A model generated the notes under the pieces. The model was not told the origin of the DNA. It ran no database searches and worked only from the letters and a program-made list of their open reading frames with translations. This document shows, one piece after another, positions 116-22,298 of a stretch of 32,403 bases of DNA. The position numbers were made by a program, and so were the translations under genes. Source of the DNA: Bacteroidales bacterium (lineage in GTDB: Bacteria > Bacteroidota > Bacteroidia > Bacteroidales > Bacteroidaceae). Numbering within the stretch: position 1 is the stretch's first letter; each line of letters starts with the position of its first letter. Location: positions 1 to 32,403 of the forward strand of contig JAUMYJ010000015.1 in the NCBI GenBank assembly GCA_030528715.1. The letters run 5' to 3'.

Positions 116-1045
116 ATGCCCAAGCACACGAACACTTTGTTTGTACTGACAGGACCTACTGGGGTGGGAAAAACAGAACTCAGCCTTGTCTTGGCTGAGT
201 TTTTGTGTTGTGACATAGTCAATGCCGATTCGCGTCAGATCTATGCAGGTATTCCTATCTCAACGGCAGCACCAACGAAGGAGCAGCGCGCACGCGTACC
301 ACATCACCTTGTAGAATGTTTGCCACTTGATGCTTATTATAGCGCAGCACAATTTGAGCAAGATGCTTTACGCATAGTTGAAGAGCAATTTGCACGCAGT
401 GGTGCAGCCTTGGTGTGTGGAGGAGCAATGCTTTATATTGATGCGTTGTGTAAGGGTATTGACAATATGCCCAATATAGATGAAGCTACACGCACGCTGC
501 TCGCAGAGCGTTATGCATACGAGGGGCTTGCACCTTTGCTGGACGAGCTTGGCCGCCTTGACCCCGAACATCGTGCCAAGGTAGACCCGCATAACGTACG
601 GCGTGTGTTGCATGCCTTAGAGGTATGTTACGTTTCGGGGCGTCCGTATAGTAGCTTTTTAGGTAAAGTTAAGGGAGAGCGTCCTTTTCGTATTGTTAAG
701 ATTGGTCTTAATCGTCCACGCGAAGTGCTTTTTGCACGCATTAACGAGCGTGTGACAGCGATGGCTGCTAGCGGCTTAATGGACGAAGCAGAGCGCGTCT
801 ATCCCTTGCGCCATCTCAATAGTCTTAATACGGTGGGTATGAAAGAGGCTTTTAAGGTTATTGAAGGTGAGTGGTCACTAGATTTTGCACTTGATCGTTT
901 GCGAAAAAATACGCGTGTCTATGCTAAGAAACAGCTTACATGGCTGGCGAAGGATACAGATGTGCACTGGCACTCTCCTGATGACCCTACGGCAGTGCTA
1001 CGTTTCGTAGCTAGCCAACTCAATATACCCGACCATACACACTAA
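116..1045 (+). CDS. miaA: tRNA dimethylallyltransferase, copy 1
   Basis: MiaA transfers the dimethylallyl group of DMAPP to N6 of A37 in tRNAs reading UNN codons, in the cytoplasm. The 309-residue protein has the usual family length. It opens with the P-loop GPTGVGKT at residues 13-20, followed by the DSRQIY motif at 38-43 that contacts tRNA and substrate. The GGAMLY segment near residue 102 and the C-terminal YAKKQLTWL segment are also typical. The ATG at 116 sits directly before the first beta strand, so the start is secure. PBP1A begins 11 bp downstream, suggesting co-transcription. A second miaA lies at 9134-10087. Carrying two copies is a known feature of Bacteroides and Porphyromonas; this copy looks the more canonical. 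Confidence 0.95.
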   Translation: MPKHTNTLFVLTGPTGVGKTELSLVLAEFLCCDIVNADSRQIYAGIPISTAAPTKEQRARVPHHLVECLPLDAYYSAAQFEQDALRIVEEQFARSGAALVCGGAMLYIDALCKGIDNMPNIDEATRTLLAERYAYEGLAPLLDELGRLDPEHRAKVDPHNVRRVLHALEVCYVSGRPYSSFLGKVKGERPFRIVKIGLNRPREVLFARINERVTAMAASGLMDEAERVYPLRHLNSLNTVGMKEAFKVIEGEWSLDFALDRLRKNTRVYAKKQLTWLAKDTDVHWHSPDDPTAVLRFVASQLNIPDHTH

Positions 1046-9133: not shown

Positions 9134-10087
9134 ATGGCTACCCCTGACAAAACACACTACGACCTTGTGAGTATCCTAGGGCCTACGGCTTCGGGCAAGA
9201 CTACTTTTGCTGCTCAACTAGCGCATCGCTGGCAGAGCGAAGTGGTGAGTGCCGATAGTCGGCAGGTATATCGCCGCATGGATATCGGTACGGGTAAAGA
9301 TTTGGCTGACTATGTGGTGGAGGGTGAGGTTGTGCCTTACCACTTGATAGATATAGCAGAGCCTGGTGAGCATTATAATATATATAGGTATCAGCACGAT
9401 TTCTTACGTGTGTATCGCGAGCGAGCTTCACAGCTCGCGTCTCCCTTAGTGCTGTGTGGTGGCTCGGGGCTTTATGCCGAGAGTGTGCTGCGTGGCTATC
9501 GCCTCTATGACGTGCCTGAAAATGCTGCGCTACGTGCCGAATTGGCTGGTCGCTCGCTGCCCGAACTCACAGCACTTTTAGCTAACTATAAAGCACTGCA
9601 CAACACTACTGATGTAGATACGGTACAACGTGCCATTCGAGCCATTGAGATCGCTGCTTACTATGCTGACCTACCTGCCGAGGCACGTGATTTTCCTACG
9701 CTACGCTCGCTCAATGTGTGTTTTGAACTTCCGCGTGAGCTGCGGCGTGAGCGCATCAGTATGCGCTTGGCAGCACGGCTAGACGAAGGTATGCTAGACG
9801 AAGTGCAGCAATTACTAGATGAAGGGCTTACGCCAGAGCAATTGATTTATTATGGGCTGGAATATAAATTTGTGACGCAGCATCTTGTCGGTGAGTTAAG
9901 CCGTGAGCAATTGCTAAAACAGCTCGAAATAGCCATTCACCAATTTGCCAAGCGGCAAATGACGTGGTTTCGTGGCATGGAGCGTCGTGGTGTGCAGCTA
10001 TATTGGCTAGATGCCACATTGCCTACGGACGACAAAATAGCACAAATCGAAGCCTGGCTTACTAGTACAAAGAAGAGACCATCATGA
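9134..10087 (+). CDS. miaA: tRNA dimethylallyltransferase, copy 2 (divergent)
   Basis: This is the second MiaA family member, 317 residues. The P-loop GPTASGKT is at 16-23 and DSRQVY at 41-46, so the nucleotide and substrate motifs are kept. The central part differs from copy 1, for example GTGKDLADY at about 52-60, and the GGSGLY motif is near residue 113. In Bacteroides and Porphyromonas genomes a second, divergent miaA is common, and which copy does the bulk of A37 modification is not evident from sequence. The stop codon overlaps the start of the lipid-kinase-like gene by 4 bp (ATGA), so the two are translationally coupled. Confidence 0.9.
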   Translation: MATPDKTHYDLVSILGPTASGKTTFAAQLAHRWQSEVVSADSRQVYRRMDIGTGKDLADYVVEGEVVPYHLIDIAEPGEHYNIYRYQHDFLRVYRERASQLASPLVLCGGSGLYAESVLRGYRLYDVPENAALRAELAGRSLPELTALLANYKALHNTTDVDTVQRAIRAIEIAAYYADLPAEARDFPTLRSLNVCFELPRELRRERISMRLAARLDEGMLDEVQQLLDEGLTPEQLIYYGLEYKFVTQHLVGELSREQLLKQLEIAIHQFAKRQMTWFRGMERRGVQLYWLDATLPTDDKIAQIEAWLTSTKKRPS

Positions 10088-11189: not shown

Positions 11190-11741
11190 ATGAAAACAAT
11201 GAGAAATCGTTTAAGTACATGGGGGCTAACCATTGCTATGGCTATGCTAGCTACTTTGCCTCAAACCACTTTGGCAGCCACCTCTCACATTGCTGTGCAG
11301 ACTAAGAAAAAGAAGCCTAAAAAGAGCAAACACGCTATGATGGCTAAGCTGGCTGGTTTGTATCAGCAGTTTACACGTAGCGGTAGTCCGATGCCAATAT
11401 TCAAGCAGCTATCCATTGATGGGGCGTACACTAACTTTATAACGATAGAGGGCGTGCTGTTGATTACTGGTGAAGGCCGTTATACGCTAGTTGATGGTAG
11501 TGATGAGCATACGTTTCAATACACGGAACATTTGGAGTTTGAGCCCTTTGGTGCTCAATCTATCGGTACGAGCAATCCGATGATGATGAAGCTGGAGAAT
11601 AATGAAACCTTTATGATTACTTTTCAAATGGCGAATATGCTAGAGCCTATGAGTGAAGTATGGTCGCGTGTGCTCCGTATTACCCCAGAGAAGCTACAAG
11701 AGCTCCAAGAAAGTGCTTCTCGTCATGCTAAAACGCTCTAA
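11190..11741 (+). CDS. Small exported protein, probable DUF4488 family (tandem copy 1)
   Basis: This 183-residue protein begins with a signal peptide of about 29 residues (hydrophobic core then TTLAA). The mature N-terminus has a lysine-rich stretch (KKKKPKKSKH at about 38-47). The remainder resembles the lipocalin-like DUF4488 pattern: a predicted beta-rich body with PIFKQLSIDGAYTNF, GEGRYTL and a closing EVWSRVLRI. No function is known for this family. It is clearly paralogous to the next gene at 11980 in order of motifs, signal peptide and lysine tract. It has its own promoter at 11116 and a strong terminator at 11806, so it is monocistronic. The DUF number is assigned from memory of the motif pattern and is less certain than the paralogy. 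Confidence 0.7.
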   Translation: MKTMRNRLSTWGLTIAMAMLATLPQTTLAATSHIAVQTKKKKPKKSKHAMMAKLAGLYQQFTRSGSPMPIFKQLSIDGAYTNFITIEGVLLITGEGRYTLVDGSDEHTFQYTEHLEFEPFGAQSIGTSNPMMMKLENNETFMITFQMANMLEPMSEVWSRVLRITPEKLQELQESASRHAKTL

Positions 11742-11979: not shown

Positions 11980-12495
11980 ATGAGAACGCGTGTATTCTCT
12001 TGGGCATTAGCCATTGGTATGGCTGCCCTATTTGCCTTGCCTGCTGCTGCCATAACGCCTGAAGTGACCATGGTGGCTGTGAAAAAGAAAAAGCTCAAAA
12101 AACTGAAACACCCCGTGGCGCAGAAACTTGAAGGTATGTTTCAAATGTGCATCAAGTACAATGGTGAGTTGCGTCCAATGCCCGTGTTGAAGCATTACGA
12201 CCTTTTTGGTCGCTACACGACCTATACTTCAATCAATGGTCGCATGGGTATTTCCGGGAAAGGCACTTATAGCCTAGCTGATTTGAGCATGCCTAAACAT
12301 AATAAGTATACAGAAACGCTAGCTTATCTGTCTAGTGCGAAAGAGCTCGCTGACCAAGACAATACCATGGAAATGGCTTGGGTGAATGATGATATCTTTG
12401 TTATAACCTATCAGCTACCCAATATGAGCGAGCCATCTAGTGAAATATGGGTGCGTGTGGTGGAATACGACCAAAAGGTTAAGGGCGAATACTAG
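11980..12495 (+). CDS. Small exported protein, probable DUF4488 family (tandem copy 2)
   Basis: The 171-residue protein has a signal peptide (core ALAIGMAALFALPAAA) and then the lysine tract KKKKLKKLKH at about 32-41. The motif order matches the upstream copy: MPVLKHYDLFGRYT, a GKGTYSL turn, a YTETL segment and the closing EIWVRVVEYD. The two paralogues keep the lysine tract and the final EVW/EIW-R-V signature but differ across most of the middle, so the duplication is not recent. The role is unknown; location is probably periplasmic or surface. A hairpin follows at 12530. Confidence 0.7.
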   Translation: MRTRVFSWALAIGMAALFALPAAAITPEVTMVAVKKKKLKKLKHPVAQKLEGMFQMCIKYNGELRPMPVLKHYDLFGRYTTYTSINGRMGISGKGTYSLADLSMPKHNKYTETLAYLSSAKELADQDNTMEMAWVNDDIFVITYQLPNMSEPSSEIWVRVVEYDQKVKGEY

Positions 12496-16751: not shown

Positions 16752-17324
16752 ATGAAACGTCTTTTTGACCTTATCCTATCCATTCTATTACTGTTTTTAT
16801 TTGCCCCTATACTCGCTGTGTGCTATATTGCTATCAAGTGTGAGGATGGTGGTAACCCGATTTTTAAGCAGGAACGTATTGGTCTTGGAGGGCATCCTTT
16901 TTATATTTACAAATTTCGCTCCATGCGTATAGATGCTGAGGCAGATGGGCCACAATTATGTAATACAAAAGGTGACGCTCGCTTGACTCATGTGGGGAAT
17001 TTTTTGCGCCGCTTACACTTAGATGAATTACCACAATTATTTAATGTGTTGATAGGGGACATGAGCTTCGTTGGTCCTCGTCCTGAGCGCAAGCATTTTA
17101 TAGATCAGATTATGAAGCACGACCCACGTTACGTAGAGCTTTATCGTATACGTCCAGGAGTGACCTCTTATGCTACCATCTATAATGGTTATACCGACAG
17201 TATGGAGAAAATGTTAAAGCGCTTAGAGTATGATCTTGAATATGTTGAGAGACATAGCCTATGGCTTGATATTAAACTGATGTGTACCACGGTATATAAG
17301 ATAATTCGTGGAAGTCGTATCTAA
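16752..17324 (+). CDS. Undecaprenyl-phosphate phosphoglycosyl transferase (bacterial sugar transferase, PglC-like)
   Basis: The 190-residue protein is a minimal monotopic phosphoglycosyl transferase, which moves a sugar phosphate from a nucleotide sugar to undecaprenyl phosphate and starts glycan assembly at the inner membrane. A hydrophobic N-terminal re-entrant helix (about 4-29) starts with KRLFDL. KQERIGLGG near 39-47 and YKFRSMR near 53-59 follow, then LRRLHLDELPQLFNVL near 85-100 with the catalytic Asp-Glu pair, and MSFVGPRPE near 104-112. All core motifs are present. It lacks the extra membrane spans of the WbaP type. It is the first gene of a compact operon with PqqD and kinase genes, 12 bp from the next, so a link to surface glycan is possible. 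Confidence 0.88.
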   Translation: MKRLFDLILSILLLFLFAPILAVCYIAIKCEDGGNPIFKQERIGLGGHPFYIYKFRSMRIDAEADGPQLCNTKGDARLTHVGNFLRRLHLDELPQLFNVLIGDMSFVGPRPERKHFIDQIMKHDPRYVELYRIRPGVTSYATIYNGYTDSMEKMLKRLEYDLEYVERHSLWLDIKLMCTTVYKIIRGSRI

Positions 17325-17336
17325 TAGAAGAATGGC

Positions 17337-18470
17337 ATGGCTTTGCAGCAGCAGTTTTTGGCATTGCTCCGCGCAGGTTTATATCGCGATAGTATAGGCG
17401 GTATTCCCGAGATTGCGACTGATGTATCGCTACCTTGGGCTGAGCTCTTTCGCTTAGCACAGCAGCAGGCTGTTACTCCACTCGTGTATGAGGGTATCAT
17501 GTGTTTACCCGAGGCACAACGGCCACAAGGAGCTGATAAGCAACCGTGGTTTGCTGCGACCTTGCAAGCTGAGATGCTCAATAAACGTATGCTTCAACGC
17601 ATGCAGACGCTTTGGCATGAATATACCACAGCCGATGTGCGTGCTGTCTTGCTCAAAGGTGCTAGTGTGGGACAATATTATGCTAATCCCTATCGTCGTA
17701 TGTGTGGCGATATTGACGTGTTGTTTCCCCATGAGGGAGATGCACTTGTTGCTGATGCTCACATGCAGAAACTGGGTATTACGCCTGAGTTTGATGTGAT
17801 GTATTATAAACATTCTGAATTTCATTGGCATGAGTTTCCCGTAGAGCACCACTATTATTTACAAGAGTTTCAGTACGCGGGCTATCGTGCATTTGTTGAT
17901 CGTTTGGCTAGGCAAGAATTAGCTAAAACGCCACGTACCTGGGCTACGCTGTCAGAGGGCTTTGTGGTGGAGGTACTACCTGTGAACTTCAACTTGTTTT
18001 TTCAACTACTTCATATCACTTCTCATCTCGTGCAATCGGGCATTGGTTTACGCCAGTTTTGCGACTTAGCACGTTTTATACAAGCTCATCGTGGCGCGTT
18101 TGATAGTGAGACGATTGATAGCTGGATAACACATCTTGGTATGCGTCCTGCTGTGAGTGCTATTGGTAGTATTTTGATAGAATGGCTAGGTGTGCCAGCA
18201 GGTATATTGCCCTTTAAAATCAATACTCAAGAGGCACTCATTCCTTACGTCAAGTACGATGTGTGGCATGGTGGTAATTTTGGACACACGTATATGCAAC
18301 AATATAAGCGTCAAGGTGGATTGCGTGGTTATATAGCATGGCTTTGGGCTAACAATAAACGCATCTGGCTCTATCGTCGCATCTTTCCTTGTGAACTATT
18401 GGCCAGCTACCTCTATCGTTTGCGTCGTGTGTTTACACGCTTACTTCGCACAGGTAGGCCTACCAAATAA
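17337..18470 (+). CDS. Nucleotidyltransferase family protein (NTP_transf_5-like)
   Basis: The 377-residue protein carries the nucleotidyltransferase signature LLKGAS near residue 102 followed by GDIDVLF, with metal-binding Asp125 and Asp127. An all-helical N-terminal segment (about 1-95) and a helical C-terminal half rich in aromatic residues match the family known from polysaccharide loci, from lasso-peptide clusters and from HPr-kinase-like/PqqD gene sets. It presumably transfers a nucleotide or phosphate group; the acceptor is unknown. It lies 12 bp after the sugar transferase and 28 bp before the small secreted protein. The C-terminus is strongly basic. The family call is firm, the reaction is not. 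Confidence 0.8.
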   Translation: MALQQQFLALLRAGLYRDSIGGIPEIATDVSLPWAELFRLAQQQAVTPLVYEGIMCLPEAQRPQGADKQPWFAATLQAEMLNKRMLQRMQTLWHEYTTADVRAVLLKGASVGQYYANPYRRMCGDIDVLFPHEGDALVADAHMQKLGITPEFDVMYYKHSEFHWHEFPVEHHYYLQEFQYAGYRAFVDRLARQELAKTPRTWATLSEGFVVEVLPVNFNLFFQLLHITSHLVQSGIGLRQFCDLARFIQAHRGAFDSETIDSWITHLGMRPAVSAIGSILIEWLGVPAGILPFKINTQEALIPYVKYDVWHGGNFGHTYMQQYKRQGGLRGYIAWLWANNKRIWLYRRIFPCELLASYLYRLRRVFTRLLRTGRPTK

Positions 18471-18498
18471 TCTATTTGAAGCAATAATGTGATAGCTT

Positions 18499-18927
18499 AT
18501 GCAAATATTTTCTTTCTTTAAGCGTATGTTGGCTGTGTTGGCATTAAGTCTATTGGCACATGTAGCCTTGGCGCAGCAGACTAACTCATCTACTGAACCT
18601 AAAACGCTCTATGTCTTTGGAGTAGTATATCATTTTGCTGATTCTACTGCGTATATCTCTGAACTCCAAATGCTCACGCTACCAACCTACAAAAATGGCC
18701 AAGTTGCTGTACAAGATGTGCTGAGTGAACGCTTCAAACGCTATGTGAAGCAGACTTACGATGTGACGCATTCTGTGTCAGCACTTTTTGTGGAAACGAC
18801 TAAGGCAAAGGCAGAAAAGCAGCTGGTGAAGGTGCGCAAGCAATATATTAAAAAAAATGGTGAGCACAAGTGGCTCCCCGTAACGCTTGAACGCTTCCGC
18901 TTTATAAATACTACACTTGAGAATTGA
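18499..18927 (+). CDS. Small secreted protein of unknown function in the PqqD/kinase operon
   Basis: This 142-residue protein has a clear signal peptide (basic FFKRM, hydrophobic core, cleavage near ALAQ at about 26). The mature 116 residues start with a Ser/Thr/Gln-rich stretch and then YVFGVVYHFADSTAYISEL near 38-56. The second half is basic, with a KAKAEKQLVKVRKQYIKKNG segment. It was not recognised as a named family, although similar proteins from Bacteroides are faintly familiar (not verified). It sits 28 bp after the nucleotidyltransferase and 9 bp before the kinase, so it is fully embedded in the operon. It is the only secreted product among these genes and therefore a candidate target for the modifying enzymes. 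Confidence 0.7.
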   Translation: MQIFSFFKRMLAVLALSLLAHVALAQQTNSSTEPKTLYVFGVVYHFADSTAYISELQMLTLPTYKNGQVAVQDVLSERFKRYVKQTYDVTHSVSALFVETTKAKAEKQLVKVRKQYIKKNGEHKWLPVTLERFRFINTTLEN

Positions 18928-18936
18928 CGTCTAGAT

Positions 18937-19821
18937 ATGCTTTTTTCGATAGCTGACTTTATTGTTGAGGTGCTCTTCTCTGGTACCGATACGCGTGACG
19001 TGCTCTCTCCTCGCAGCTACAAACCTTTTTGGTTGGCAGACGAGAGTAGTGCATCTACTGACCGCCTCTTTGTGTGTGAGCTCGTAGACGATGGTCTTGG
19101 TAAAGATATTGCAAAGGAATTGGGGCAGTTTGAGAGTGCTGGTGTTACTAATGGTGTATTTACGCGTCATGCGGGAGGGTATTTTTTGCAGGTGCGCAAT
19201 GTTGAAGGTCAACTCGCAGCTTTGGTTGAGACAACAGCAGACTTTGCTCGTCTGCGTGTCCAGCTTTTTGGCGACCTCAATAATCGTCGCTATGGCTTGA
19301 ATAACGCTATGATGATTGGCTTTGCTTTTTCCTCTGCCTTACATCATACGCTGCTCATTCATGCATCTGTTACGATGAAGGAAGGGCGTGGCTATCTCTT
19401 TTTAGGGCGTAGTGGTACAGGAAAAAGTACCCATTCACGCCAATGGCTTGAAAATATTTCGGGCACAGAGCTACTCAATGATGATAACCCTGCGGTGCGC
19501 TTGCATTCTGATGGTATAGCGCGAGTCTATGGTACACCATGGAGTGGTAAAACGCCTTGCTACAAGCAACAATCTGCGACTGTAGGTGCTTTTGTACGGA
19601 TAGTGCAGCACCCCGAAAATCTTATTTCAAGAGACCCTGCTCCATTGGCACTTTCATCGATATTATCTTCAAGCTCTACGATGATTTGGGATAAGCAGAC
19701 TTATAGTGCAACTTGTAATACCATAGCTAAGATTTTAGCTTCTACACCGGCCTATACACTCCGTTGTCGCCCAGAGCCTGCTGCTGCATACCTTTGTCAT
19801 GATACGGTTTATTCTGCCTAA
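18937..19821 (+). CDS. HPr-kinase-like P-loop serine kinase
   Basis: The 294-residue protein has the P-loop GRSGTGKST with Lys163 and a following LLNDDNPAVR segment (near 185-194) in the place of the HprK second acidic motif. GTPWSGK near 204-210 is seen in HPr-kinase-related proteins but not in genuine HPr kinase. The N-terminal 120 residues do not match the HprK N-terminal domain and the HprK signature motif is missing, so it is not expected to act on HPr. Related kinases phosphorylate peptides in some lasso-peptide clusters and accompany PqqD-like proteins in HPr-rel-A gene sets. It starts 9 bp after the secreted protein and 32 bp before the peptidase gene. Confidence 0.78.
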   Translation: MLFSIADFIVEVLFSGTDTRDVLSPRSYKPFWLADESSASTDRLFVCELVDDGLGKDIAKELGQFESAGVTNGVFTRHAGGYFLQVRNVEGQLAALVETTADFARLRVQLFGDLNNRRYGLNNAMMIGFAFSSALHHTLLIHASVTMKEGRGYLFLGRSGTGKSTHSRQWLENISGTELLNDDNPAVRLHSDGIARVYGTPWSGKTPCYKQQSATVGAFVRIVQHPENLISRDPAPLALSSILSSSSTMIWDKQTYSATCNTIAKILASTPAYTLRCRPEPAAAYLCHDTVYSA

Positions 19822-19853
19822 CGCATTCATTCTAAGATAGCTATTTTTTTGGT

Positions 19854-20339
19854 GTGTCATTGATACAAACTAGGCTTATCCCTACTGAGATACTTGTACC
19901 GATGTGGCAAGATATCCTTGCTAGTGGCCGCACGGTAACTCTTCGTGTGCGTGGTCGTAGCATGCGCCCTTTATGGCATCACAATCGTGATAGTGTGCGT
20001 TTGTCATCGCTTACTGGGGAGTTGCGCGTAGGGCTAATTGTTTTGGCCGAAGTGGAACCCGAGCACTATGTTATTCATCGTATCGTGGCTTTGCAGCCTG
20101 AGCGTGTGGTGCTGCGTGGTGATGGTAATCCTTATGCACGCGAATATTGTTCTCCTCACCAAGTGTTGGGCGTCATAACATCTTTTACGCTATGCCGCTG
20201 TGGTCGTTGCTATGTGTTTAGTACTAGTGGCTGGTTTTGGAAACTTTACTCTGCTCTTTGGCCAAGCAGTGCTCTGTTGCGCCGTTGTTTACTCAAACTT
20301 GATCGCTGTCTTTTTGGGGCAGACGACTTAACACAATAA
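19854..20339 (+). CDS. S24/S26-like signal peptidase family protein with Ser/His pair
   Basis: The 161-residue product has VRGRSMRPL with candidate nucleophile Ser36, and YVIHRIVAL with His75 where bacterial signal peptidase I has its Lys. Ser/His is the arrangement of SipW-type, archaeal and eukaryotic signal peptidases. RGDGN near 93-97 matches the conserved GDxN box. There is no N-terminal membrane anchor; a hydrophobic, aromatic segment at about 123-140 could bind the membrane. The start is a GTG at 19854, since the frame has no upstream ATG, and TTG at 19860 is an alternative. It may process a substrate of the neighbouring kinase and PqqD genes. Confidence 0.72.
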   Translation: MSLIQTRLIPTEILVPMWQDILASGRTVTLRVRGRSMRPLWHHNRDSVRLSSLTGELRVGLIVLAEVEPEHYVIHRIVALQPERVVLRGDGNPYAREYCSPHQVLGVITSFTLCRCGRCYVFSTSGWFWKLYSALWPSSALLRRCLLKLDRCLFGADDLTQ

Positions 20340-20357
20340 CATCAATTCTTTTTCTAT

Positions 20358-20633
20358 ATGAAACACGTAAAACCAGGCTTCGAGCTTATGGATGTCTGTG
20401 GTGATAAGGTCATCGTAGCTCATGGCATCGACAATATTGATTTTAACACACTCATACAGCTCAACGACTCTGCTGCTTACCTATGGGAGCAGCTGAGTGA
20501 CGGACGAGCGTTTGATAAGCATATTATGGCCGAGCTTTTGCTAGAAGCTTATGATGGTGTTACACGTGAGCAAGCAGAGGCTGATGCAGAAGCACTCATC
20601 TGTCAATGGGAAGAACTAAAAATTATAGGCTAG
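20358..20633 (+). CDS. PqqD family protein (RiPP recognition element-like)
   Basis: The 91-residue protein has the compact beta-then-helix pattern of PqqD: KVIVAHGIDNIDFNTLIQLNDSAAYLWEQL (short hydrophobic strands, then a helix starting at about 37), an acidic middle and a terminal helix with EALICQWEELKII. In pyrroloquinoline quinone and other peptide pathways, PqqD-like domains bind the leader of a precursor peptide and present it to a modifying enzyme. No radical-SAM gene or precursor gene is adjacent. It is the last gene of the operon, 18 bp after the peptidase, and is followed by a terminator hairpin. Confidence 0.78.
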   Translation: MKHVKPGFELMDVCGDKVIVAHGIDNIDFNTLIQLNDSAAYLWEQLSDGRAFDKHIMAELLLEAYDGVTREQAEADAEALICQWEELKIIG

Positions 20634-20981: not shown

Positions 20982-22298
20982 ATGATGGAAATAACAAGCG
21001 TACAGCCTGCTACGGGTAAGCTAGGTATATTGTCTGTCGGCATTGGTGCCGTTACTACTACTTTTATTGCAGGTACTATTTTGAGCCGCAAGGGTATTAG
21101 TATTCCTAGTGGTTCTGTTACTCAGATGGCTACGATGCGTGTAGGTCAGGGTGCTGACAAACGCTATCTTAAAGTACATGAGGTGGCTCCCATAGCTAAG
21201 CTTGATGACCTCGTTTTTGGTGGTTGGGATATTTTTGAAGACAATGCTTACGAAGCTACACTCAACGCTGATGTGCTCAAATATCGCGATGTAAAGCAAG
21301 CGCGTGAGGAGCTCGAAACCATTGTGCCGATGAAAGCTGTATTCGACCCCACTTTCGTGTCACGCCTTAGTGGCAACAATGTTAAGCAAGGTGGCACACG
21401 TTGGGAGCAGATGGAGCAGCTCCGTGAAGATATTCAACGCTTTAAGGTTGAGAACGGATGCGAGCGTATTGTTGTTATTTGGTCAGCTTCTACTGAAAAG
21501 TACATTGAGTACAATGAGGCTGTACATGGCTCATTGGCTAAACTCGAAGCTGCGATGAAGGCTGATGATTGTGAGAATATTGCGCCTTCTATGTGCTACG
21601 CCTATGCAGCCTTGGCAGAGGGAGCACCATTTATTATGGGTGCACCTAACCTTTGCGTAGATATTCCAGCCATGTGGGAACTGGCCGAGAAGTGTCAAGT
21701 ACCTATTGCTGGTAAAGACTTTAAGACGGGGCAAACACTGATGAAAACAGTTCTAGCCCCGATGCTCCGTACACGTGCTTTGGGTTTGTCAGGTTGGTTC
21801 TCTACCAATATCCTTGGCAATCGTGATGGCGAGGTGCTTGATGCTCCCGAAAACTTTAAGACCAAGGAGGTCAGCAAGCTCTCTGTTATCCACAATATTC
21901 TAGATGCTGATACCAATCCAGAGCTTTATGGGGAAATACATCACAAGGTACGTATCAACTACTACCCACCCCGTGGCGACAATAAAGAAGGTTGGGATAA
22001 TATTGATATTTTTGGCTGGATGGGTAAGGACTATGGCATGCAGATTAAGGTAGACTTCCTCTGCCGTGACTCTATTCTTGCTGCTCCGTTAGTGCTGGAC
22101 CTAGTGCTCTGTGCTGACCTCGCTAAGCGTGCTGGCCAGTGGGGTAATCAAGACTGGCTCTCGTTCTTTTTGAAAAGTCCTATGCACGACTATACTAAGG
22201 GTGAAGAGCCCCTACACGACCTCTTTCAGCAATACATCGTTTTTAAGAATGCCATTCGCCTTATGGGTGGCTATGAAGCCGATGAAACTATCGATTAA
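20982..22298 (+). CDS. ino1: Inositol-3-phosphate synthase (myo-inositol-1-phosphate synthase)
   Basis: The enzyme converts glucose 6-phosphate to inositol 3-phosphate using NAD as a transient oxidant. The 438-residue protein starts with a Rossmann segment (LGILSVGIGAVTTTFIAG) and keeps the family motifs GWDIFEDNAYEA near 80, VVIWSASTEKY near 164, GKDFKTGQT near 246, and SGWFSTNILGNRDG. The catalytic-region lysines typical of the family are present in the GKDFK and KTV segments. It has its own promoter at 20940. In Bacteroides this enzyme is the entry point to inositol phospholipids and inositol sphingolipids; no adjacent inositol-lipid synthase genes are visible here. ATG at 20985 is an equally possible start. 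Confidence 0.93.
   Translation: MMEITSVQPATGKLGILSVGIGAVTTTFIAGTILSRKGISIPSGSVTQMATMRVGQGADKRYLKVHEVAPIAKLDDLVFGGWDIFEDNAYEATLNADVLKYRDVKQAREELETIVPMKAVFDPTFVSRLSGNNVKQGGTRWEQMEQLREDIQRFKVENGCERIVVIWSASTEKYIEYNEAVHGSLAKLEAAMKADDCENIAPSMCYAYAALAEGAPFIMGAPNLCVDIPAMWELAEKCQVPIAGKDFKTGQTLMKTVLAPMLRTRALGLSGWFSTNILGNRDGEVLDAPENFKTKEVSKLSVIHNILDADTNPELYGEIHHKVRINYYPPRGDNKEGWDNIDIFGWMGKDYGMQIKVDFLCRDSILAAPLVLDLVLCADLAKRAGQWGNQDWLSFFLKSPMHDYTKGEEPLHDLFQQYIVFKNAIRLMGGYEADETID

What the first reader, a model, noticed from the sequence alone, without database searches (positions are those of the whole stretch)
16752..20633. Compact operon joining a sugar-phosphate transferase, nucleotidyltransferase, secreted protein, HPr-kinase-like kinase, Ser/His peptidase and PqqD-like protein
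Six genes lie on one strand with gaps of 9-32 bp and a terminator after them. Established knowledge: HPr-kinase-related, PqqD-like and nucleotidyltransferase genes co-occur (HPr-rel-A sets), and kinases plus nucleotidyltransferases decorate lasso peptides. Here no radical-SAM enzyme, lasso cyclase, precursor or transporter is visible, but a phosphoglycosyl transferase, a signal-peptidase-like protein and a secreted protein are. Inference: a peptide- or protein-modifying pathway at the envelope, possibly coupling phosphorylation or nucleotidylation and processing to glycan assembly. The combination and its substrate appear uncharacterised.
Basis: partly seen in the sequence, partly recalled or inferred. 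Interest (0 to 1): 0.78.

Follow-up and report, generated by a model that had tools for sequence, protein, structure and literature searches.

The report
Trans-acting phosphopeptide-type maturation operon
A Bacteroidales bacterium carries a small enzyme kit like one recently shown to phosphorylate and trim peptides in other bacteria, and its likely substrates are short, unannotated peptides scattered around the genome, mostly beside large surface-type proteins.

Summary
The six genes are real but are not one conserved unit. In 32 same-genus loci the conserved set is secreted protein-kinase-peptidase-PqqD (28 of 32); none has the sugar-phosphate transferase or nucleotidyltransferase there.

HprK-like kinase, Ser/His/Asp signal-peptidase-like protease, discrete PqqD-type RRE and PF14907 protein are the enzyme set of LPP (linear polyphosphorylated peptide) RiPPs, described in 2026 from Bacillota (PMC13381572). 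Catalytic and leader-binding residues are conserved.

No precursor or exporter lies in the operon. I found a peptide family with a YxxP leader, without Pfam or NCBIfam model, dispersed through these genomes (up to 22 hits in one). It follows the kinase: 162 of 187 kinase-positive against 4 of 62 kinase-negative genomes of the family, and within genera (8 of 10 vs 0 of 37; 23 of 27 vs 1 of 11). The window's own genome has five candidates, each directly downstream of a larger gene.

Best reading: a trans-acting, LPP-like maturation module. Chemistry, export and biological role are inferred. New variant of a known kind.

The parts
16752..17324 (+). PGT: phosphoglycosyl transferase (PF02397), accessory in this species
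   Evidence: Pfam E 5.2e-63; within 4 kb and on the strand of the kinase in 0 of 32 same-genus, 2 of 39 same-family, 1 of 21 other-family loci
17337..18470 (+). NTP5: NTP_transf_5 nucleotidyltransferase-like protein (PF14907), counterpart of LppN/PsmN
   Evidence: Pfam E 3.2e-36; beside the kinase in 0 of 32 same-genus, 7 of 39 same-family, 10 of 21 other-family loci, 2 of 6 named contigs and the 1 second copy; found somewhere in the genome of 18 of 22 other same-genus genomes searched
18499..18927 (+). SEC: small secreted protein of unknown family, conserved partner of the module in this genus and some genera of the family
   Evidence: hydrophobic N-terminus; no Pfam family; in 30 of 32 same-genus, 17 of 39 same-family, 0 of 21 other-family loci, 1 of 6 named contigs; alignment A2
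18937..19821 (+). KIN: HprK-like kinase, counterpart of LppK; H142, K163, D182, D183 invariant in 26 sequences
   Evidence: alignment A1; TIGR04352 2.2e-5 below cut-off; profile E <= 1e-10 in 187 of 249 family genomes
19854..20339 (+). S24: signal-peptidase-like Ser/His/Asp protease, counterpart of LppS; S36, H75, D90 invariant in 23 sequences
   Evidence: alignment A4; profile hits SEC11C 7p2q E 1.2e-4 with Ser, His and Asp aligned; beside the kinase in 32 of 32 same-genus loci
20358..20633 (+). PqqD-like discrete RRE, counterpart of LppB; N36 invariant and D76 nearly invariant in 21 sequences
   Evidence: PF05402 E 4.1e-12; alignment A3; profile hits LppB structure 9x8z E 0.0016; single match in its own genome

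Best explanation
The operon is a trans-acting RiPP-type maturation module that works like the LPP system of Bacillota. The PqqD-like RRE captures the N-terminal YxxP leader of short peptides encoded elsewhere in the genome. The HprK-like kinase phosphorylates a Ser about 20 residues from the leader Tyr, the Ser/His/Asp peptidase removes the leader, and the NTP_transf_5 protein may add a sugar or nucleotide to the phosphorylated Ser. The phosphoglycosyl transferase is an accessory in this species, and the secreted protein a lineage-specific partner. Shown: gene content, conserved catalytic and leader-binding residues, the peptide family, its co-occurrence with the kinase, its position beside larger genes. 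Inferred: binding, phosphorylation, cleavage, NTP5 chemistry, export and biological role.
For: Same enzyme set as lppKBSN. Residues: kinase H/K/D/D, protease S/H/D, RRE N and D that in LppB bind the YxxP leader. Peptide family found, Ser at position 20 from Tyr in 76% of 89 (partly circular) against 19 in the published LPP consensus. Co-occurrence with the kinase: 162/187 vs 4/62 in the family sample, 151/176 vs 4/62 without training genomes; 15/41 vs 5/254 in the order sample, 11/37 vs 5/254 without training genomes; within six genera, 0 of 100000 permutations. 20 of 25 peptides lie within 150 bp of a same-strand ORF of 300 aa or more, against 95 of 652 other short ORFs. Five candidates in the window's own genome.
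Against: No exporter and no precursor in the operon; the peptides lack the full LPP consensus. The regex that seeded the family showed almost no excess by itself (30 of 909 vs 24 of 910 on the other strand). Four genomes have peptides but no kinase and no PqqD match (G380, G390, G411, G543), and 25 of 187 kinase genomes have no peptide at the threshold, the window's own among them. Two incomplete same-genus genomes, G010 and G014, lack kinase and PqqD but have weak to moderate peptide hits. Ser is not at position 20 in about a quarter of the peptides. In the published system deleting lppN had no visible effect. No structure could be predicted.
Confidence: 0.72

Rival explanations
1. The module acts on its own operon partner: SEC is phosphorylated or processed by kinase and peptidase, and the YxxP peptides are an unrelated family that follows the same lineages.
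For: SEC lies beside the kinase in 30 of 32 same-genus loci.
Against: SEC is absent from 51 of 99 kinase loci, including all 21 of other families, while peptide and kinase co-occur even within genera. SEC has a hydrophobic, signal-like N-terminus and no conserved YxxP in its consensus.
Confidence: 0.1
2. The module modifies an envelope polysaccharide or its lipid carrier, with kinase and NTP5 working on glycans rather than on peptides.
For: PGT and NTP5 in this operon; PGT-PqqD-NTP5-kinase sets in L112 and L176; NTP5 among glycosyltransferase-like genes in several of 8 contexts.
Against: PGT is beside the kinase in only 3 of 99 loci. An RRE that keeps the leader-binding Asn and Asp and a leader-peptidase-like protease point to a peptide. 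The peptide co-occurrence is unexplained.
Confidence: 0.08
3. A relic of a lasso-peptide cluster: tailoring kinase, nucleotidyltransferase and B1-type RRE left after loss of cyclase and B2.
For: These three are lasso tailoring parts in Bacillota (passages of PMC9266682 and PMC7533575).
Against: Kinase in 187 of 249 genomes and 19 of 22 genera of the family with invariant active-site residues: not a decaying relic. The protease type is that of LPP, not of lasso B2. The rest of the genome was not searched for a cyclase.
Confidence: 0.04

Closest known systems
LPP (linear polyphosphorylated peptide) RiPP system, Paenibacillus alginolyticus lppA-K-B-S-D-N (PMC13381572)
   Same: HprK-like kinase, discrete RRE, SpI-like Ser/His/Asp leader peptidase, NTP transferase; YxxP leader with a Ser at similar spacing; association with polysaccharide loci in part of the relatives.
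   Different: Here no exporter and no precursor in the operon; precursors dispersed and beside larger genes; different leader consensus; SEC partner; Bacteroidales; near-universal in a family rather than patchy.
Paeninodin-type and pseudomycoidin lasso peptides (PadeK, ThcoK, PsmK, PsmN)
   Same: HprK-like tailoring kinase with a His-Lys-Asp-Asp motif, nucleotidyltransferase homologue, PqqD-like B1 (passages).
   Different: No cyclase or B2 among the six proteins; protease of another type.
HPr-rel-A sets
   Same: Kinase shows weak similarity to TIGR04352.
   Different: 23.7 bits against a cut-off of 200; other set members not tested.
Prochlorosins (ProcM) and PEP-CTERM/exosortase systems (recalled, no call)
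   Same: One maturation locus serving many substrates scattered in the genome.
   Different: Unrelated enzymes and motifs.

Membership tests
LPP RiPP system | HprK-like kinase with H-K-D-D residues | tested here: met
   H142, K163, D182, D183 invariant in 26 sequences; assigning them to the motif named in PMC9266682 is my inference; activity not tested
LPP RiPP system | SpI-like leader peptidase with Ser, His, Asp | tested here: met
   S36, H75, D90 invariant in 23 sequences, aligned with SEC11C; LppS residues; LppS itself not aligned
LPP RiPP system | Discrete RRE with N33 and D70 for the YxxP leader | tested here: met
   N36 invariant, D76 in 90% or more of 21 sequences; alignment to 9x8z; 9x8z is LppB-LppA leader
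LPP RiPP system | NTP transferase in the cluster | tested here: met
   PF14907 in the window; beside the kinase in 20 of 99 related loci
LPP RiPP system | MsbA-like exporter in the cluster | tested here: not met
   none in the window operon; beside the kinase in 30 of 99 related loci, 0 of 32 same-genus
LPP RiPP system | Precursor in the cluster with YxxPxVLxHQxIxFETxxS | tested here: not met
   no conserved small ORF at the modules, none in the window; dispersed YxxP peptides with another consensus
LPP RiPP system | Poly-phosphorylation of core Ser and RRE-dependent leader cleavage | not testable with these tools
   needs mass spectrometry
LPP RiPP system | RRE falls in the LPP clade | not tested
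   no tree was built
Lasso peptide cluster | Macrolactam synthetase (C) and B2 protease | tested here: not met
   not among the six proteins by Pfam; the rest of the genome was not searched
HPr-rel-A | TIGR04352 score at or above 200 | tested here: not met
   23.7 bits

The most novel reading that the evidence does not exclude
A large family of Bacteroidales carries a near-universal phosphopeptide-type RiPP system in which one conserved maturation locus serves up to about 20 dispersed precursors, most co-encoded with a BspA-like or other large surface-type protein, so that the modified peptides act with the cell surface (as ligands, anchors or caps of surface proteins) rather than as free bacteriocins.
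Probability: 0.5. Interest if true: 0.9.

Novelty: new variant of a known kind. Interest (0 to 1): 0.78.

Why it matters
LPPs were described as restricted to Bacillota, with an extremely patchy distribution there (PMC13381572). Here the same enzyme types occur in 19 of 22 sampled genera of one Bacteroidales family (kinase), together with a substrate-like peptide family for which the Pfam and NCBIfam copies searched have no model. If true, it gives a testable role to many short hypothetical proteins beside large surface-type genes and to the stand-alone PqqD-like, HprK-like and signal-peptidase-like genes of these bacteria.

Tried and rejected
Clustering of small ORFs around the modules found no conserved local precursor: the only clusters of 3 or more loci were one basic protein at a distance and its antisense frame, 3 loci. 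The [YW]xxP regex near modules had almost no excess over the other strand (30 of 909 vs 24 of 910); a few similar ORFs were picked from it and by eye as seeds, so the support comes from the later tests, not from the regex. PHROGs and Rfam gave nothing useful. The scan of genome contigs with the kinase found 6 loci. PDB chains found with the kinase profile are mainly PEP carboxykinases and ABC-type P-loops, best E 0.0025. Pfam gave no family for 4 large genes next to peptides that look fimbrillin-like to me (L162, L285, L286, L293) nor for 4 of 7 large neighbours in other genera (L289, L292, L296, L282), so 'fimbrillin-like' is only my reading. No paper on this system in Bacteroidales was found in ten searches of the open-licence PMC library; most subscription papers and all preprints are outside it.
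Full report
OBSERVATION. The six ORFs exist on one strand with gaps of 12, 28, 9, 32 and 18 bp. A terminator right after the last gene is not supported beyond chance. Pfam identifies the phosphoglycosyl transferase PGT (PF02397), NTP5 (PF14907) and PqqD (PF05402). Kinase and peptidase are seen only below curated cut-offs, and the secreted protein SEC by nothing convincing.

WHAT IS CONSERVED. I fetched 99 neighbourhoods of the kinase: 32 same-genus, 39 same-family, 21 other-family, 6 named contigs, 1 second copy. Within 4 kb and on the kinase strand: same genus S24 32, PqqD 30, SEC 30, the three together 28, NTP5, PGT and ABC exporter 0. Same family PqqD 38, S24 35, SEC 17, exporter 11, NTP5 7, C11 peptidase 5, PGT 2. 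Other families S24 19, PqqD 17, exporter 16, NTP5 10, PGT 1. Named contigs PqqD 3, S24 3, exporter 3, NTP5 2, SEC 1, with two of six having no partner. The second copy has PqqD and NTP5. SEC (48 of 99) and exporter (30 of 99) never share a locus. Some loci are cut by contig ends, so absences are upper bounds. NTP5 is found somewhere in 18 of 22 other same-genus genomes searched; of 8 such contexts viewed, several lie among glycosyltransferase-like genes and others do not (read by eye).

SPREAD. Kinase profile A1 at E <= 1e-10: 187 of 249 family genomes, 19 of 22 genera. In the order sample of 295, 41 genomes reach 1e-10 and 20 reach 1e-60. One search counts 133 at E <= 0.001, but many of the weaker ones lie in frames of about 540-600 aa, look like PEP carboxykinase, and were left out of the later tables.

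THE KNOWN MATCH. PMC13381572 (abstract, sections 6, 7, 8, 11, 12, 35 and passages seen) describes LPP RiPPs: LppK, an HprK-like kinase putting several phosphates on core Ser3; LppB, a discrete RRE; LppS, an SpI-like leader peptidase (S29, H68, D93) that needs LppB; LppN, an NTP transferase whose deletion had no visible effect in the heterologous host; LppD, an MsbA-like pump; in capsule loci. The authors say LPPs are restricted to Bacillota, although their protease cluster is 'predominantly' from Bacillota; the terms Bacteroid and Prevotella do not occur in the main text. In the Bacteroidales families kinase H142, K163, D182, D183, protease S36, H75, D90 and RRE N36 are invariant and RRE D76 is nearly so. 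The RRE profile hits the LppB structure 9x8z (E 0.0016) with the Asn and Asp aligned; I identified them as N33 and D70 from their 37-residue spacing. The protease profile hits SEC11C (E 1.2e-4) with the three residues aligned. The His-Lys-Asp-Asp motif of lasso kinases and the hexose role of PsmN are from passages of PMC9266682.

THE MISSING PRECURSOR. No conserved small ORF sits at the modules and none with the motif in the window (read by eye). The YxxP regex near modules was not enriched (30 of 909 vs 24 of 910). A few hits looked alike, however: YxxPxhEVxxVxxExGhAAS. Five large lipoprotein-like genes beside modules (L107, L112, L162, L175, L186) each have such an ORF just upstream. A profile of eight (A6) at E <= 1 matched 25 of 41 genomes: 23 of 25 same-genus (window genome included), up to 11 hits each, and 2 of 16 others, G044 (kinase-positive, 5 hits) and G052 (one marginal hit). 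Same-genus genomes without a kinase (6 of 37): G002 and G021, 58% and 56% complete, have no peptide; G010 (one weak hit) and G014 (6 hits, best 5.6e-4) have peptides although neither kinase nor PqqD was found, both incomplete (82%, 89%); G025 and G027 were not.

CO-OCCURRENCE. Profile A7 (35 sequences) at E <= 0.01 on the samples used for the kinase (tables). Family: 162 of 187 kinase-positive and 4 of 62 kinase-negative genomes have peptides (p 1.2e-31); without genomes that gave training sequences 151 of 176 vs 4 of 62 (p 2e-30). Order: 15 of 41 vs 5 of 254 (p 1e-10); without training genomes 11 of 37 vs 5 of 254 (p 9e-8); with peptide E <= 1e-3, 7 of 37 vs 0 of 254 (p 3e-7). Genera with both states (genus labels): g26 8/10 vs 0/37; g27 23/27 vs 1/11; g28 37/43 vs 1/3 (p 0.07); g186 3/4 vs 0/2, g190 3/4 vs 1/2, g193 9/10 vs 1/2 (not significant alone); the sum is reached in 0 of 100000 within-genus permutations. 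Fisher tests across the whole sample ignore relatedness. Exceptions: G380, G390, G411, G543 have peptides but neither kinase nor PqqD. Of the 25 kinase-positive genomes without peptides, 17 were tested for PqqD and all 17 have it. The window genome itself counts as peptide-negative here.

PEPTIDE ANATOMY. 92 profile hits in loci at hand gave 89 distinct YxxP pieces: Glu at 7 in 57%, Val at 8 in 58%, Glu at 14 in 68%, Ser at 20 in 76% (Tyr = 1); Trp in the last ten residues in 64 of 89. Selection by profile makes this partly circular. The published LPP consensus has Ser at 19 (my count). No Pfam or NCBIfam model covers the 27 full-length members (best chance-level match 0.041, a lasso model, in one member). 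In 20 contexts that I chose among the hits, 17 gave 25 countable peptides (E <= 0.1, YxxP present); 20 of 25 lie within 150 bp of a same-strand ORF of 300 aa or more, against 95 of 652 other short ORFs (p 2e-12). Peptides come before large lipoprotein-like genes in the g26 and g27 contexts and after large secreted-type genes in several other genera. In the window's genome five candidates were found with one of them as query (E 3e-38 self, 3e-17, 0.002, 0.005, 0.14), each 16-30 bp (upstream stop codon included) after a larger ORF on the same strand. Two of those larger proteins match DUF285 and BspA-type LRR_5; two others look alike by eye; the fifth does not.

MECHANISM. By analogy with LPP: RRE binds YxxP; kinase phosphorylates the Ser; peptidase cleaves N-terminal to it; NTP5 may extend the phosphate. 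How the product leaves a cell whose module has no exporter is open; that SEC has a part in it is a guess from the SEC/exporter exclusion. The role of PGT is unknown.

VERDICT. A real and widespread system that works like LPP but fails two of its defining features in this operon (exporter; in-cluster precursor with the LPP consensus), hence a new variant and not filed as a member. All chemistry is inferred.

Noticed in passing
L152, L154, L156, L157, L185 (between SEC and kinase): A C11 (clostripain) peptidase-like lipoprotein gene of about 410-430 aa is inserted between SEC and the kinase in 5 of 39 same-family loci (Pfam run on the L152 protein only).
   Followed up: partly
99 kinase loci: SEC (48 loci) and the ABC exporter (30 loci) never occur in the same locus, as if one replaced the other; lineage effects were not removed.
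   Followed up: partly
L191-L220 peptides (alignment A8): Many peptides end in a Trp-containing acidic tail (often WxS-x-x-W-like); Trp lies in the last ten residues of 64 of 89.
   Followed up: partly
L286 and L287: Order peptide, 943-aa lipoprotein-like gene, then an ORF that looks like NTP5 by its start, away from a kinase module (by eye).
   Followed up: no
L069 (second kinase of G031) and L184-L186: Some genomes have a second, divergent kinase locus of other make-up beside the SEC-type one.
   Followed up: no
window 20982-22298: A myo-inositol-1-phosphate synthase gene (Pfam) lies directly downstream of the operon, separated by about 350 bp.
   Followed up: no
window 11190-11741 and 11980-12495: Two similar small secreted-type proteins in tandem with a Lys-rich stretch after the signal-like start (by eye).
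   Followed up: no
window 116-1045 and 9134-10087: Two proteins that both look like tRNA dimethylallyltransferase (MiaA), read by eye, no family search.
   Followed up: no
G380, G390, G411, G543: Genomes with peptide hits but no kinase or PqqD at the thresholds used; G411 and G543 are 99% complete.
   Followed up: partly
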